Shown: positions 20,009-64,000 of the stretch, piece after piece
How positions within the stretch are numbered: the stretch's first letter is position 1
Layout: each line of letters begins with the position of its first letter
DNA from: a candidate division WOR-3 bacterium
Lineage (GTDB): Bacteria; Hydrothermota; Tepidihabitantia; Tepidihabitantales; CAIPLT01
Length of the DNA stretch: 64,000 nucleotides
Assembly: GCA_039801505.1 (NCBI GenBank)
Contig: JBDRUV010000003.1
Span: forward strand, 52,062-116,061
Direction of reading: 5' to 3'
Program-made: the position numbers and the translations under genes
Notes under the pieces: model-generated
What the model was told of the DNA's origin: nothing
Seen by the model: only the letters and a program-made list of their open reading frames with translations
Databases searched by the model: none

Positions 20009-20314
20009 TGAGTAGTTGCTCAAGCTAGCCGGTAAAATCTTTGTGTAACTACTACCAAGAACGATATAAGAAAAGTAACACTAAATACGCCTTGAGTGAT
20101 TGATATAATTTATGGTCCATAGTGAAAGGACTGAAAGATCCTGATAAGATCTGCCGAAACAAAAATTTTTTGGACCATAATTTTGTCCGAATTCTTCGAC
20201 GTGCCATTCCCACAATATAATAATCTCACTAAAATCTATTCAGTCTCGGTTAATAAATTTCAACACATAAACAAACATTTTCGGAATGTAATACCGGCGT
20301 AACACACCAAAAGC
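20009..20314. other. Intergenic region with a distant inverted repeat
   Basis: No gene is seen. A 10-bp perfect inverted repeat, TTATGGTCCA at 20110-20119 and its complement at 20171-20180, encloses 51 nt and could form a long-armed hairpin; its meaning is unknown. The next element starts at 20315. Confidence 0.5.
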
Positions 20315-20668
20315 ATTAGTTATAACTAATACTTTTTAAGGTCGATTTTTAAAGCTAACTATTTGATATTCTTATAGCTATATCAAAATCGGCTAAAAAG
20401 ATGGTACAGTTCCCCCAGTAGCCTCCTGGGTGGTTGTGGGTATAGCTCTGGAAGTGGTTCTGGGATTAGTTATCGTAGTAGCTACGGGTATAGCTCTTAG
20501 GGTAGCCTATGGGATTAGCTTCGGAAATGGTTATGGGACTGGCTATATAATTGGTTTTGGGATTGGCTCGGGGATATGCTCCGGGAGTAGTACTAAGAAT
20601 AGTTCCAGGAGTGGCTCTGGGGTGGCCTTAGGGAGTAGGAATATCTGGATCAGATCCAGATATTCCTA
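20315..20668 (+). repeat. Element A: palindrome head, conserved block and degenerate 12-nt tandem array
   Basis: The element opens with a perfect 16-nt palindrome (20315-20330). A block of about 90 nt (20331-20420), also found at 62982-63072, follows and ends in GTTCCCCCAGTAGCC. Then comes an array of about 17 degenerate 12-nt units of the form GCTNTGGGANTG (20421 to about 20638), with two or three one-base indels. A perfect 33-nt palindrome (20636-20668, 16-bp arms around one base) closes it. The array reads as Ser-Gly-rich peptide in one frame and Pro-rich in the other strand, as any 12-nt repeat would; no start signal supports translation. It ends 22 nt before the recJ -35 box. Confidence 0.75.
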
Positions 20669-60343: not shown

Positions 60344-60372
60344 GAAGGAGCCTTCTGGCTCCTTCTTTTTTT
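60344..60372 (+). terminator. Intrinsic terminator of the PKD lipoprotein gene
   Basis: Perfect 9-bp stem GAAGGAGCC/GGCTCCTTC with loop TTCT and a run of seven T. Its right half is also the start of direct repeat copy 1. Confidence 0.95.
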
Positions 60373-60516
60373 ACTTAGAAAATCTTATCCCCCGCCGGGT
60401 ATTACTATTGCGTCATTAAAATCTTTTCGGTAAGCTCTTTTACCTTCTTTTAGTACCTCGGGTTTTAAGCCTCGGGCTTGCCACACTGAAAATCGCTCAG
60501 CAATCGATGCTTCAGC
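60350..60516. repeat. Long direct repeat, copy 1 (left of the R-M cassette)
   Basis: 167 bp, matching 62738-62903 with only two substitutions and one single-base indel. It starts in the apex of the lipoprotein terminator and holds its 3' arm and T-run, so copy 1 is the complete, original side. Confidence 0.95.
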
Positions 60517-60562
60517 CGCAGGCCCTGTGCCATACTTCTTAAATCGCCGATAACACTCCCCC
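60385..60562 (-). pseudogene. 3' remnant of an unidentified gene
   Basis: A minus-strand frame of 59 codons without a start, ending in a stop at 60385-60387, reads like true protein (RFSVWQARGLKPEVLKEG, then DFNDAIVIPGGG at the end). It begins where the restriction gene stops but is in another frame. It overlaps direct repeat copy 1. The same stretch in copy 2 is frameshifted by the 1-bp indel. It looks like the tail of a gene broken by insertion; the family is not recognised. Confidence 0.45.
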
Positions 60563-61342
60563 TTATCTTAATTCACTAAACTTTTTGTCTATTTCTTTTC
60601 TTAATTTTTCACCGGCATTTTGAAAAGCGTCTAATAAATCTGCATAAATTTCTCCGCCGCCGACGAAATTCCAAAATTCCTCACCGACTAAAACTTCTCC
60701 TCTATCCAAGTCATATAAACCTCTTAATGTCCATCTATCGTAAGGTTCGGGATAATAAGGATTATATGGAATAGCCAAACGAGTGAATACCTCGATATTT
60801 TTATTTTGGCTCATTCTTAATGCTGTCCATCGCAGAAGTTTTAATTTCAGCGCAACAAATTCTTTTAGATTAGGCTTAGCACTGGTAATGTCAAAAAAAT
60901 TTTCTAAGTTTTGGATTTTAACAAAGAGATCAACAATTGAGTCTGGGTCTTGCAATGGTTTTCCAGGCTTGATTGATTTTTTTATAATATTAATTTCATT
61001 CTGCTTATTAGCTTCAAGTTCATTTTTTCTTAGCTTATAATGTAATTTGCTTATTAAATCTTGGGTCGTTTCGTCTATTTCACCAAGTAATTTATATTGG
61101 CGTTCAGCTTGATAACCGGCGCCTTCTGCTAAAATTACTGCTACTTGTTCCCATATTGACATTCCAAAAGTTGTATTCATCGATTGAATGAATGAAAACA
61201 TCGCGTAACGGTCTTTACCTAGGAGTCTATGATGAAATGGCATATAAGAAGTTTCTGGTTCATATTTTTTCAATTTTTCTTTTACGGTATCAATTAATAA
61301 AGTAATAATTTTGTCCTTTACTAATTGTTTAAGCGCCATCAT
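60563..61342 (-). CDS. Type II restriction endonuclease, TdeIII/MjaII-like
   Basis: This 259-residue protein follows a methyltransferase with a TAATG overlap. MPFHHRLLGKDR, SIWEQVAVILAEGAG and VDLFVKIQNLENFFDI fit the TdeIII/MjaII family of PD-(D/E)xK nucleases, whose members are reported to cut GGNCC; the family call is from memory. D138 and D151 are candidate acid residues, but the expected D-x-K reads D-I-T with Lys only at 156, so activity is uncertain. Confidence 0.7.
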   Translation of the reverse strand: MMALKQLVKDKIITLLIDTVKEKLKKYEPETSYMPFHHRLLGKDRYAMFSFIQSMNTTFGMSIWEQVAVILAEGAGYQAERQYKLLGEIDETTQDLISKLHYKLRKNELEANKQNEINIIKKSIKPGKPLQDPDSIVDLFVKIQNLENFFDITSAKPNLKEFVALKLKLLRWTALRMSQNKNIEVFTRLAIPYNPYYPEPYDRWTLRGLYDLDRGEVLVGEEFWNFVGGGEIYADLLDAFQNAGEKLRKEIDKKFSELR

Positions 61343-62559
61343 TAATCGTCTTTTATAAAATAAAATATCGATTCGAAATATCTATTTTTATCCCGTTCCG
61401 TTCTCATCAAGACAGGGCGATGGAAAACATCGATTAGTTGAAATCCACATTGTTTGCCAATATCAGGGTAAAGATTAAACTTATCATTAGCAACGATGAA
61501 AATCTTTGCCCCCTTTATTAAATTTTTAGCAATATTTTTAAAAACATCAACAATCCCTCGTACATATTCCTTTCGCGCATTTTCGCTCTGTCCTTTACTT
61601 GCCGGCCCTATTTCTAACTCATCTTGCCTCGGAAAACCGAATAGTTCGTAAGCATATCGATGTTGTTCATGATAATCAATTACACCAACATAGGGTGGTG
61701 AAGTAAAAACTCCGTCTATTTTATAATAATCGGGTAAAGTAACTTTTCGGGCATCTCCCTGAATAATTTTGACAAAAGCATCCGTTCTGATTTTATCAAA
61801 CTCTTTAAGTCTTTTTATTGTATCATAACTATAGCGTCTGATGAACTTGTAGGCTTCTGCGATTGGCATGCAGTATCTTTTGTGTTTTATACACCAATAT
61901 TTTTCTCTAACTGGTTTTTTAGGTCTTGCTAAATCATAATGGGGAATAAGTCTTGCTGAGCGTGCCGAACGAGATAAAATTACTTTTAACACATCTTGAT
62001 TTTTATAATGATTAATAATGCTTTTGTAAAAAAGAATTTCTTGTAATGCTTTTGGCGAAAACCAAGTTCGTAAATATTCACTGTCGGTATCAAACTGTGT
62101 TGCCATTTTATGGAATAAAGATTTATTTTCCAAACTCGTTTTATATTCCCATAATTTCTTTAAGGCATCTCTGATTTCAAATTCGACTTCGTCAAGATTG
62201 TATTTTTTGGTTTTAACCTGTTGAATCAATATATTAAAATGCGATAATTCAATACCGATAGAATTAATTCCTAAAGTATTTGCTTCAACAAGAGTAGTGC
62301 CAGAACCAGAAAACGGGTCAATAATTGTATCGCCTGGTTTGAAATATTTTTTAAGAAAAACCTCAACTAATTGAGGAATAAATTTTCCAAGATACGGATG
62401 CAGACGATGAACATGCTTGGTTCGCTCTGATTCTTTAATACTTAGAAATGTTAAATCGTTTCCTAAAATTTGGAGATTTTTTTGAGTATCACTAATCGCT
62501 TCAATTTTGTTAATATCAATACCATACTTTTTTGCTGCTTCTCTGTTTATCTGAAGCAT
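61342..62559 (-). CDS. Type II DNA methyltransferase (N4/N6 amino-methylating)
   Basis: This 405-residue methylase has the SAM motif DPFSGSGTT at 81-89 and the catalytic TSPPY at 286-290, with about 200 residues between that can hold the target-recognition region; an HPYLGKF motif lies before motif I. SPPY points to N4-cytosine or N6-adenine methylation. It is the first gene of the pair, so protection is made before the endonuclease. Confidence 0.88.
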   Translation of the reverse strand: MLQINREAAKKYGIDINKIEAISDTQKNLQILGNDLTFLSIKESERTKHVHRLHPYLGKFIPQLVEVFLKKYFKPGDTIIDPFSGSGTTLVEANTLGINSIGIELSHFNILIQQVKTKKYNLDEVEFEIRDALKKLWEYKTSLENKSLFHKMATQFDTDSEYLRTWFSPKALQEILFYKSIINHYKNQDVLKVILSRSARSARLIPHYDLARPKKPVREKYWCIKHKRYCMPIAEAYKFIRRYSYDTIKRLKEFDKIRTDAFVKIIQGDARKVTLPDYYKIDGVFTSPPYVGVIDYHEQHRYAYELFGFPRQDELEIGPASKGQSENARKEYVRGIVDVFKNIAKNLIKGAKIFIVANDKFNLYPDIGKQCGFQLIDVFHRPVLMRTERDKNRYFESIFYFIKDD

Positions 62560-62737: not shown

Positions 62738-62903
62738 GCCTTCTGGCTCCTTCTTTTTTTACTTAGAAAATCTTATCCCCCGCCGGGTATTACTATTGCG
62801 TCATTAAAATCTTTTCGGTAAGCTGTTTTACCTTCTTTAGTAGCTCGGGTTTTAAGCCTCGGGCTTGCCACACTGAAAATCGCTCAGCAATCGATGCTTC
62901 AGC
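62738..62903. repeat. Long direct repeat, copy 2 (right of the R-M cassette)
   Basis: 166 bp, near-identical to 60350-60516. It carries only the right half of the terminator hairpin, so it cannot work as a terminator and is the derived copy. Confidence 0.95.
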
Positions 62904-62965
62904 TATCAGTCCGAATCTTTTTAGGTTTTTCAGCCATCTCTTTTGTAAAAATAACCATAAAATAG

Positions 62966-63239
62966 GTTACTTATAAGTAACGCTTTTTAAGGGACAAATT
63001 TTAAGCTAACTCCTTGATAGTCTTATGGCTAAATAAAAATCGGCAAAAGGGATGGTATAGTTCCCCCAGTAGCCCCCAGAGTTGCTCTGGGAGTAGCTCT
63101 GAGGGTTGCTATGGGATTAGCTTTGGGTATGGCTCTGGGACTGACTATGAGACTGGCTTCGGAGATGGCTCAGGGATATGCTCTGGGAGTAGTTCTGGGA
63201 GTGGCTTAGGGAATGGCTCTGGGAGCGGCTCCCTGGGTG
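62966..63239 (+). repeat. Element B: palindrome head, conserved block and 12-nt tandem array
   Basis: Same plan and orientation as the element at 20315-20668. A perfect 16-nt palindrome (62966-62981) of different sequence but the same pairing is followed by the shared block (62982-63072, CTTTTTAAGG to GTTCCCCCAGTAGCC). Thirteen exact-length 12-nt units follow (63084-63239), consensus GCTCTGGGAGTG with much point variation. A short GGGAG/CTCCC hairpin closes it. No start signal or ribosome site supports translation of the Ser/Gly-rich frame. Confidence 0.8.
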
Positions 63240-63251
63240 GGTATATAAAGG

Positions 63252-63277
63252 AAAAACGGGGCTCATTTGAGCCCCGT
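63252..63277 (-). terminator. Terminator of the partial T9SS-type gene
   Basis: 9-bp stem ACGGGGCTC/GAGCCCCGT with loop AAAT and TTTTT on the minus strand, 15 nt after the stop at 63293. Confidence 0.93.
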
Positions 63278-63292
63278 CTTGATACTTCTTCG

Positions 63293-64000
63293 TTAACGCA
63301 CCAGAAGCTTGACTTCAGCCTTCTCAGTGCCTTGCTCATACTTTAAGAAGTAGACACCACGAGCTAACCGCGTAGCATCAACAGTCATGGTATAAGTACC
63401 AGCCTCAAGTGTGCCCTCATACAGCGTGCTCACAACCCGACCAGAAGCATCGTAAAGCTTCAGACTCACCCGACCAGTCTGCGGTACATTGTAACGCACC
63501 GTGGCTAACTTCGTCAGCGGATTCGGCGTCACATCCAAACTAAAGAGTGCCTTGCTCTCAGTGCGCTCTGTAGCTACTGAAGGAGTAGTCACCGGCAGGA
63601 CTCGAGCCACCTCACCACCGCCAATGCCATAGCGCCAGAACTCTGGAGTGTTATTACCCTTCAAGAGATAGATCGCACCACCCAGATAAGCCATTGAAGC
63701 ACCAGTCTTAGGTACCGACTTCTTGTTATTGTCAACCTTCGGAACCGTATCGACAAGCAACCAGCTGTTCTGATTGATACCATACCAATACAGATACGGC
63801 ACACCACCACCCTTTATCGCATATATCGCATTGCCCGCCACCACCAACGCACCACCATCCTTAACATAGAACTTCTTACCCTTCTTAGCTGTACCAGCCC
63901 AGAAACTATCAACCTCAGGAAGCTGCGCAACCTCTGCCCAATTTCCATCCGCAATGCTATACCGAGCAAAGTAATTCGGCTTATCGCCGCCTTTCATCGC
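63293..64000 (-). CDS. Kelch-like surface protein with T9SS-type sorting domain, 5' end cut by window edge
   Basis: About 235 residues are visible and the frame is open at the window edge, so the start lies outside. Repeats of the form YAIKGGGVPYLYWYGI and YLLKGNNTPEFWRYGI (about every 60 residues) look like kelch propeller blades. The C-terminus (TPNPLTKLATVRYNVP, SLKLYDASGRVV, GVYFLKYEQG, VKLLVR) is a full type-A sorting domain. GC and codon use are richer than the window average, which may mean strong expression. Confidence 0.85.
   Translation of the reverse strand, partial: AMKGGDKPNYFARYSIADGNWAEVAQLPEVDSFWAGTAKKGKKFYVKDGGALVVAGNAIYAIKGGGVPYLYWYGINQNSWLLVDTVPKVDNNKKSVPKTGASMAYLGGAIYLLKGNNTPEFWRYGIGGGEVARVLPVTTPSVATERTESKALFSLDVTPNPLTKLATVRYNVPQTGRVSLKLYDASGRVVSTLYEGTLEAGTYTMTVDATRLARGVYFLKYEQGTEKAEVKLLVR

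What the first reader, a model, noticed from the sequence alone, without database searches (positions are those of the whole stretch)
62966..63239. Element B: second copy, with compensatory changes in the head palindrome
The heads of copies A and B are both perfect 16-nt palindromes: ATTAGTTATAACTAAT and GTTACTTATAAGTAAC. Two of the eight base pairs differ (A-T to G-C, and G-C to C-G) with pairing kept on both sides. That is the mark of a selected hairpin or a symmetric protein site, not of chance. The next block is alike in both copies, and B has thirteen exact 12-nt units.
Basis: seen in the sequence. Interest (0 to 1): 0.7.

Follow-up and report, generated by a model that had tools for sequence, protein, structure and literature searches.

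The report
Repressor-gene switch scattered through a genome
Element B is one of 25 copies found in this genome, a relative of candidate division WOR-3 bacteria, of a 115-base unit with a palindromic head; in relatives the same unit sits at the start of a family of XRE-type DNA-binding genes, so the head is likely where that protein binds, and beside B only apparent fragments of such a gene remain, around a restriction-modification pair.

Summary
The palindrome and its paired changes are real, but they are a small part of something larger. A and B are two of 25 copies found in this genome of a 115-nt unit: palindromic head, spacer of fixed length with a TTGANNNTCA motif, GC-rich tail. In A, B and many relatives' copies a 12-nt periodic array follows. 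The unit occurs in 11 of 61 related genomes. Ten of these are exactly the ten with a full-length member of one XRE-type helix-turn-helix family. In eight places matched by two separate searches the head lies next to that gene's start, always divergent. There the head often overlaps a sigma-70-like promoter (12 of 20 scored), so autorepression is the likely role. B's left flank holds apparent remnants of such a gene, around a TdeIII restriction-modification pair flanked by a 167-bp direct duplication. Array-less units persist at the same loci in two species although flanking DNA is saturated, so they are probably selected. Covariation fits a symmetric protein site better than an RNA hairpin; the CGATTTT/AAAATCG stem is not conserved. 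Binding is untested. In this genome only 3 of 24 dispersed heads best match the operator of its one intact XRE gene. The role of the array is unknown.

The parts
62960..63074 (+). Element B, 115-nt unit (head, spacer, tail) as defined by model R1
   Evidence: cmsearch 119.1 bits; one of 25 copies in the genome
62966..62981 (.). Head palindrome GTTACTTATAAGTAAC; likely operator
   Evidence: sequence; covariation over 71 distinct heads; position at XRE gene starts in relatives
62956..62958 (-). Former start codon of the apparent XRE gene remnant (MVIFTKEMAEKPKKIRT...), 7 nt left of the head
   Evidence: VFSKEMAELLKKIRT / IFTKEMAEKPKKIRT, 73% over 15 aa, E 0.17 alone
62796..62900 (-). Apparent C-terminal remnant of the XRE gene (SIAERFSVWQARGLKPELLKKVKQLTEKI)
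   Evidence: tblastn against the XRE family, best E 0.014 for the window
63014..63022 (+). Middle motif TTGATAGTC (family consensus TTGANNNTCA) at fixed distance from the head
63053..63074 (+). Tail, ending GGTATAGTTCCCCCAGTAGCC; variant of GGTACAGTCCCCTACACGGTC
63066..63233 (+). Array of 14 non-identical units in strict 12-nt register; its start overlaps the tail
62738..62903 (.). Copy 1 of a 167-bp direct duplication (3' part of the apparent XRE remnant and a terminator-like end)
   Evidence: 98% identity (164 of 167) to 60350-60516
60350..60516 (.). Copy 2 of the 167-bp duplication, on the far side of the restriction-modification pair
   Evidence: further XRE-like stretch at 60439-60558 (-), best E 0.020
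60563..61342 (-). TdeIII-type restriction endonuclease, 259 aa
   Evidence: PF09520 E 3e-61
61342..62559 (-). DNA methyltransferase, 405 aa
   Evidence: PF01555 E 7.5e-18
20309..20423 (+). Element A, same 115-nt unit
   Evidence: 112.7 bits
20414..20640 (+). 12-nt array of element A (degenerate; the register shifts along it; end set by eye)

Best explanation
Element B is a copy of the 115-base unit, with its 12-base repeat array, that lies at the 5' end of a family of XRE-type genes in WOR-3-related bacteria, and its head palindrome is likely the operator to which that protein binds as a dimer to repress its own promoter. In intact units the gene points away from the head (shown). In 12 of 20 unit-bearing gene starts or remnants scored, the best-scoring -35/-10 pair spans or overlaps the head; in two (family f4) the palindrome abuts the -35 box; in six the best pair lies elsewhere. 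In 8 of the 20 the -10 box ends 5-8 nt before the start codon. Promoter activity and repression are inferred. The protein is predicted also to occupy the dispersed copies; the middle motif, tail and 12-bp array would be further contact points or an oligomer track (inferred, and the array does not carry the head's half-site). At B the gene appears to survive only as an N-terminal and a C-terminal fragment beside a TdeIII restriction-modification pair that is flanked by a 167-bp direct duplication (duplication shown; insertion of the pair into the gene inferred). Array-bearing copies seem to have spread recently by an unknown route; array-less copies are older, stay at the same loci and are probably kept by selection.
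For: R1 units occur in 11 of 61 genomes; 10 of these are exactly the 10 with a full-length XRE family match. Eight places in five genomes have an XRE match and an R1 match (E<=0.01) from the two separate searches within about 60 nt, always divergent: G001:C55, G002:C122, G002:C20, G003:C14, G005:C439, G005:C224, G007:C23, G007:C14. Of 20 stretches read by eye at XRE matches (three of them among those eight), 14 show a unit. Promoter geometry, e.g. TTGAAA-17-TAATAT-6 nt-ATG in G001. Heads covary. 38 of 78 dispersed members have an operator of their own genome's XRE genes among the best matches (label-permuted mean 11.8; 17 of 2000 permutations as high). 9 of 13 array-less G001 members share at least one neighbour gene with a G000 member, 6 of them both. 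At 8 such pairs flanks (0.34) and downstream DNA (0.31) are hardly more alike than between unrelated loci (0.31, 0.29), yet head and motif persist. B's flank holds XRE-like fragments, and several G005 units have clear truncated XRE starts (e.g. E 1.8e-13, 4.9e-11).
Against: In the own genome only 3 of 24 dispersed members best match the operator of its one intact XRE gene (GTGTACTGCACGGTACAC); in G004 0 of 3 and in G010 0 of 3 do. No unit was seen by eye at G004_L138 and G008_L143, nor in 6 of the 20 stretches (one cut by the contig end, two covering only C-terminal fragments). R1 gives E<=0.05 at only 5 of the 12 full-length XRE loci given to it; the rest were judged by eye. The array does not carry the head's half-site (z 0.9 in G000; best 2.5 among 49 tests). 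Co-occurrence follows clades, so the ten genomes are not independent. R1 was built with the head pairs, so its hits lean to paired heads. The fragments in B's flank are weak taken singly (best E 0.014 and 0.17), and only 8 of the 50 upstream stretches tested had an XRE match at E<=0.01, none of them in G000. No shuffled control was run for the promoter scoring.
Confidence: 0.6

Rival explanations
1. REP-like or MITE-like selfish repeat: the units are non-autonomous copies of a cassette [XRE gene + head + tail + array] spread by an unknown recombinase; most copies do nothing for the host.
For: Array copies in G000 are 71-95% identical to B at different loci, two half copies ending at contig ends; none of the 15 neighbour proteins of eight G000 array copies matches any of the 5 known for four G001 array copies (three of those four lie at contig ends); several G005 units carry truncated XRE starts; XRE matches, many of them fragments, number 22 in G005.
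Against: No transposase gene seen in the unit; no shared clean ends seen by eye; array-less units are inherited at fixed loci while flanks are saturated, which neutral relics would not do. The one empty-site check found no syntenic locus, so mobility is not shown.
Confidence: 0.2
2. The unit is a small RNA gene: head hairpin plus T-run, spacer and tail make a structured RNA, and the array is its 12-nt-periodic body, pairing with the C-rich tail.
For: Paired changes in the head; lag 12 or 24 strongest after the tail in most groups with unlike sequences; CCCAGAG can pair with CTCTGGG of array units.
Against: Mean folding z between -0.1 and -1.5 and similar on both strands; symmetry reaches the centre of the palindrome; block stem not conserved; no Rfam match above gathering score over the element; in L077 and L081 a convergent reading frame ends 20 and 27 nt after the tail, leaving little room for a body.
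Confidence: 0.12
3. The array encodes a repetitive peptide (4- or 8-residue repeats).
For: Period 12/24 is a multiple of 3; read by eye, G012 arrays give a hydrophobic 8-residue repeat (sequences), and L001-L005 share an open frame from TTG at +48. Open-frame share is about 2 sd above shuffles in G001 (0.33 against 0.17 +- 0.08) and 1 to 1.5 sd in G004, G008 and G012.
Against: Elsewhere open frames are no more frequent than in column-preserving shuffles (G000 1.00 against 0.90 +- 0.12; G005 0.81 against 0.84; G002 0.12 against 0.14; G003 0.17 against 0.15), and the least-stopped frame differs between members. In the G001 array copy L047 each forward frame has a stop (read by eye).
Confidence: 0.05

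Closest known systems
REP elements and REP-associated tyrosine transposases (RAYTs) (abstract and outline of PMC2817692 seen)
   Same: Dispersed intergenic palindromic units, a linked gene in some copies, genome-specific unit sequences, correlation of gene presence and unit presence.
   Different: The linked gene is an XRE-type HTH protein, not a transposase; the unit is a 115-nt composite of fixed spacing, 2-25 found per genome, with a 12-nt array in many; many units are vertically fixed.
Autorepressing centromere-binding proteins of plasmids (TubR/tubC, ParR/parC, omega/parS of pSM19035; passages of PMC5016525 seen; iteron Rep proteins recalled)
   Same: A DNA-binding protein represses its own promoter and direct repeats lie by that promoter.
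   Different: Chromosomal, many loci, no partner NTPase looked for, and the array does not share the half-site of the palindrome.
Mycobacteriophage immunity repressors with stoperators (abstract and outline of PMC9283540 seen)
   Same: One HTH repressor with many sites dispersed through a genome besides its own operator; a second domain after the HTH.
   Different: No match to one family member in 50,697 phage records and none confirmed in viral contigs; the head is symmetric; matches to phage regulator families lie mainly in the HTH.
SaPI repressor Stl and immunity repressor chain 8bny (PDB)
   Same: Weak profile similarity to an HTH repressor (Stl E 7.8e-4 over profile 11-206; 8bny E 9.5e-4 over 12-62).
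   Different: Similarity is weak; signs of an island or prophage were not looked for beyond.

Membership tests
XRE (Cro/C1-type) transcription regulators (linked gene) | HTH_3-type DNA-binding domain | tested here: met
   HTH_3 above the curated cut-off in 4 of 4 proteins: 31.9, 29.6, 32.9, 35.7 bits against 23
XRE (Cro/C1-type) transcription regulators (linked gene) | Binds a palindromic operator at its own promoter | not testable with these tools
   Position and covariation fit; binding needs an experiment
REP/RAYT | Linked Y1-type transposase | tested here: not met
   Only HTH models exceed their cut-offs in the linked proteins
REP/RAYT | Short palindromes, usually over 100 copies per genome | tested here: not met
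   25 copies of a 115-nt unit in G000; 2-25 in the 11 genomes with matches
Iteron/centromere module | Direct repeats carry the site recognised at the operator | tested here: not met
   Half-site matrix against arrays, z 0.9 in G000 and at most 2.5 in 49 tests
Iteron/centromere module | Partner ATPase/GTPase or replication gene next to the binding protein | not tested
   Neighbour genes were listed but not searched for this
Transposon or MITE | Terminal inverted repeats and target-site duplication | tested here: inconclusive
   Upstream and downstream ends compared by eye: ends differ between copies; no empty site found
Known structured RNA families (Rfam 15) | Match above gathering score | tested here: not met
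   Searches (window 62900-63300; 12 loci): no match above gathering score over the element; three tRNAs elsewhere in the loci

The most novel reading that the evidence does not exclude
WOR-3-related bacteria carry a lineage-wide nucleoprotein system: a fast-evolving XRE protein family with a C-terminal domain that also occurs alone, whose composite sites (head dyad, middle dyad, tail, 12-bp polymerisation track) are scattered over the chromosome and shift in concert with the protein, serving chromosome organisation or global silencing rather than one operon.
Probability: 0.2. Interest if true: 0.85.

Novelty: new variant of a known kind. Interest (0 to 1): 0.6.

Why it matters
If right, it is a repressor-and-dispersed-operator family, so far seen in a group known to me only from metagenomes, in which site and protein can be followed as they change together across ten genomes, with old, fixed sites and young, spreading ones in the same chromosome. 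It would let the question of how a regulator and dozens of its sites drift together be tested by simple binding assays. It also shows a 12-nt period kept across families while the sequence is not, which has no explanation yet. In the searched library no paper holds 'WOR-3' together with 'intergenic' and 'palindrom' or with 'tandem repeat'; nothing wider is claimed.

Tried and rejected
Coding array: no clear excess of open frames over column shuffles, with G001 about 2 sd above. Array as iterons with the head's half-site: not supported. CGATTTT/AAAATCG stem: not conserved. Whole-unit RNA fold: weak and alike on both strands. Known RNA: none above threshold. Phage or virus origin of the XRE gene: no match for one family member in phage records, none of 20 candidate stretches confirmed in viral contigs. 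Rightward sigma-70 promoter ending at the tail: looked at by eye, no constant -10 box. A -35 box is not constant in array-less G000 members by eye, so they may not be promoters. Empty site for copy A: the G002 relative of its right neighbour lies in another context. Protein structure: not available. Literature terms tried.

Full report
Observation. The two palindromes are where stated and differ at two pairs with symmetry kept. B's array has 14 units in strict 12-nt register, all of different sequence. The feature reaches further left than given.

Copies in the genome. A search with B found ten places in the own genome: eight with head and block (B, A and six more), one 3' half at a contig end and one head-and-block place without array. 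Searching for the head and, separately, for the tail alone brought array-less relatives. Of the nine places found by the tail alone, five carry the palindrome at the same distance upstream, three (L037, L041, L042) carry a different AT-rich head and one (L043) has none (read by eye). From 17 sequences a covariance model R1 was built with only the five head pairs. At E<=0.01 it finds units in 11 of 61 related genomes: G000 25, G001 18, G002 21, G003 11, G004 18, G005 21, G007 11, G008 18, G010 7, G012 5, G014 2; none in the other 50 (run with stricter filters because of the number of genomes). E-values are rough by the tool's own note. The unit beside the intact XRE gene of G000 is not among the 25: R1 scores it 16 bits only, and it was recognised by eye.

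Anatomy. Most units measure about 115 nt from 6 nt before the head to the end of the tail: palindrome with A-tract before and T-run after, AATTT, TAA, TTGANNNTCA and the tail, at constant distances, with free sequence between. After the tail, lag 12 or 24 is the strongest of lags 4-30 in G000 array copies (0.32), G001 array copies, G002, G003, G004, G005, G008, G010 and G012, and weakly in the other G001 members (0.031). In G007 lag 23 is strongest and 12 second. There is no such period in the 22 other G000 members (-0.001) or in G014. Groups G001 array, G004, G007, G008, G010, G012 and G014 hold only two or three members each.

Head. 114 members were centred on their best palindrome; 82 share one register and 32 were dropped; 71 of the 82 are distinct. 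Paired changes are strong at pairs 3, 7 and 8 from the centre (79, 94 and 69% Watson-Crick against 38, 45 and 32% shuffled) and symmetry extends to the central four bases. The centring favours pairing, and relatedness is not removed. Folding z of the unit averages -1.00, -1.46, -0.95, -0.12 and -0.61 (G000, G001, G002, G003, G005) on the plus strand and -1.08, -1.46, -1.11, -0.85, -0.76 on the minus strand. This fits a DNA dyad better than an RNA hairpin.

Linked gene. Clustering the flanking reading frames gave one family shared by four genomes whose start lies by the head: XRE-type proteins with HTH_3 above cut-off and an unassigned C-terminal part. The ten are the R1-positive genomes apart from G014. 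Eight places have both kinds of match side by side, always divergent. Of 20 stretches fetched at XRE matches, 14 show a unit by eye. Of the 12 full-length XRE loci given to R1, five have a hit at E<=0.05; the others were judged by eye, and two (G004_L138, G008_L143) show none. Twelve proteins of the family were found at E<=1e-10 in a word-based search of 5.8 billion. The C-terminal domain also occurs alone in small proteins, three of them in G000.

Promoter. 22 XRE starts or remnants could be scored for -35/-10 pairs with spacers of 15-19; 20 of them bear a unit. In 12 of the 20 the best pair spans or overlaps the head (e.g. G001 TTGAAA-17-TAATAT, G000 TTGATT-17-TACACT, L003 TTGACA-15-ACTAAT). 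In G007 and G012 (TTGAAA-16-TATAAT) the palindrome abuts the -35 box from upstream. In six (one G003, two G005, B, L007, G010) the best pair lies elsewhere. The -10 box ends 5-8 nt before the start codon in 8 of the 20, and also in the two starts without a unit (G004, G008). In B the place of the -35 box reads CCTTAA on that strand. No shuffled control was run for this scoring.

B's own gene. The left flank of B reads MVIFTKEMAEKPKKIRT and, in another frame, SIAERFSVWQARGLKPELLKKVKQLTEKI, resembling both ends of the family; single matches are weak (E 0.17 and 0.014 in the window), and stronger remnants of this kind are seen in G005. Between these and a second C-terminal-like stretch at 60439-60558 (E 0.020) lie a DNA methyltransferase and a TdeIII endonuclease, flanked by a 167-bp direct duplication of 98% identity. 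Insertion of the pair into the gene with a long target duplication is the simplest reading (inferred; such insertions of restriction-modification systems are recalled, and papers naming them were seen only in a search listing).

Old and young units. Nine of 13 array-less G001 members share a neighbour gene with a G000 member, six of them both neighbours; one of the nine (L088) matches the neighbour of an array copy as well. None of the five neighbour proteins known for the four G001 array copies matches a neighbour of the eight G000 array copies; three of the four G001 copies lie at contig ends. For eight pairs, identity of flank (0.34) and downstream DNA (0.31) is close to that of unrelated loci (0.31, 0.29), spacers are above (0.46 against 0.36), and head (0.66 against 0.68) and middle motif (0.79 against 0.74) are about as alike as between any two members. 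So the motif stays while the locus-specific sequence is mostly lost. The ninth pair was left out because G000_L043 has no head. Detection by R1 favours motif-bearing loci.

Specificity. Comparing dispersed heads with operators read by eye at XRE genes of nine genomes, the own genome is among the best in 38 of 78 (permuted mean 11.8, sd 8.6; 17 of 2000 as high): G001 13 of 16 (never the sole best), G002 7 of 16, G003 10 of 11, G007 2 of 2, G012 3 of 3, but G000 3 of 24, G004 0 of 3, G010 0 of 3 (all G005 members and the members listed there as XRE-linked or remnant-bearing, B among them, were left out). In G000 most heads are of the TTASTTATAASTAA type, the class of B itself, so the main class may have lost its protein or have it in the unassembled part. 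This is the weakest point of the explanation.

Verdict. The finding is real and larger than described. The symmetric-protein-site reading is the better one. Function of the array, the route of spread and binding itself are open.

Noticed in passing
window 60350-60516 and 62738-62903: 167-bp direct duplication, 98% identical, flanking a TdeIII endonuclease (60563-61342 -) and a DNA methyltransferase (61342-62559 -): looks like insertion of a restriction-modification pair with long target duplication.
   Followed up: partly
window 63240-63300; L002, L006: B, L002 and L006 share the same right flank, the 3' end and terminator-like end of genes that look like T9SS-type sorting genes (name recalled, not searched). 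Either repeated insertion at like targets or copying together with the flank.
   Followed up: no
window 20636-20668: Perfect inverted repeat of 16-nt arms (TAGGAATATCTGGATC A GATCCAGATATTCCTA) at the end of array A.
   Followed up: no
L217, L222, L226 (G000) and L218, L220, L223, L225, L228, L230, L232, L234: Small proteins (frames of 125-170 aa) that match the C-terminal domain of the XRE family without the HTH; not searched against family libraries.
   Followed up: partly
L041, L042, L037 (G000): Units with the same tail but another head (GCATCTATAT-like) at a slightly different distance: perhaps a second head class.
   Followed up: no
L196 (G003:C9:44000-44700): Beside an XRE match, a longer tandem repeat of several tens of bases (AAATTCTGATAAACTAAAGATAA...) instead of the 12-nt array.
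   Followed up: no
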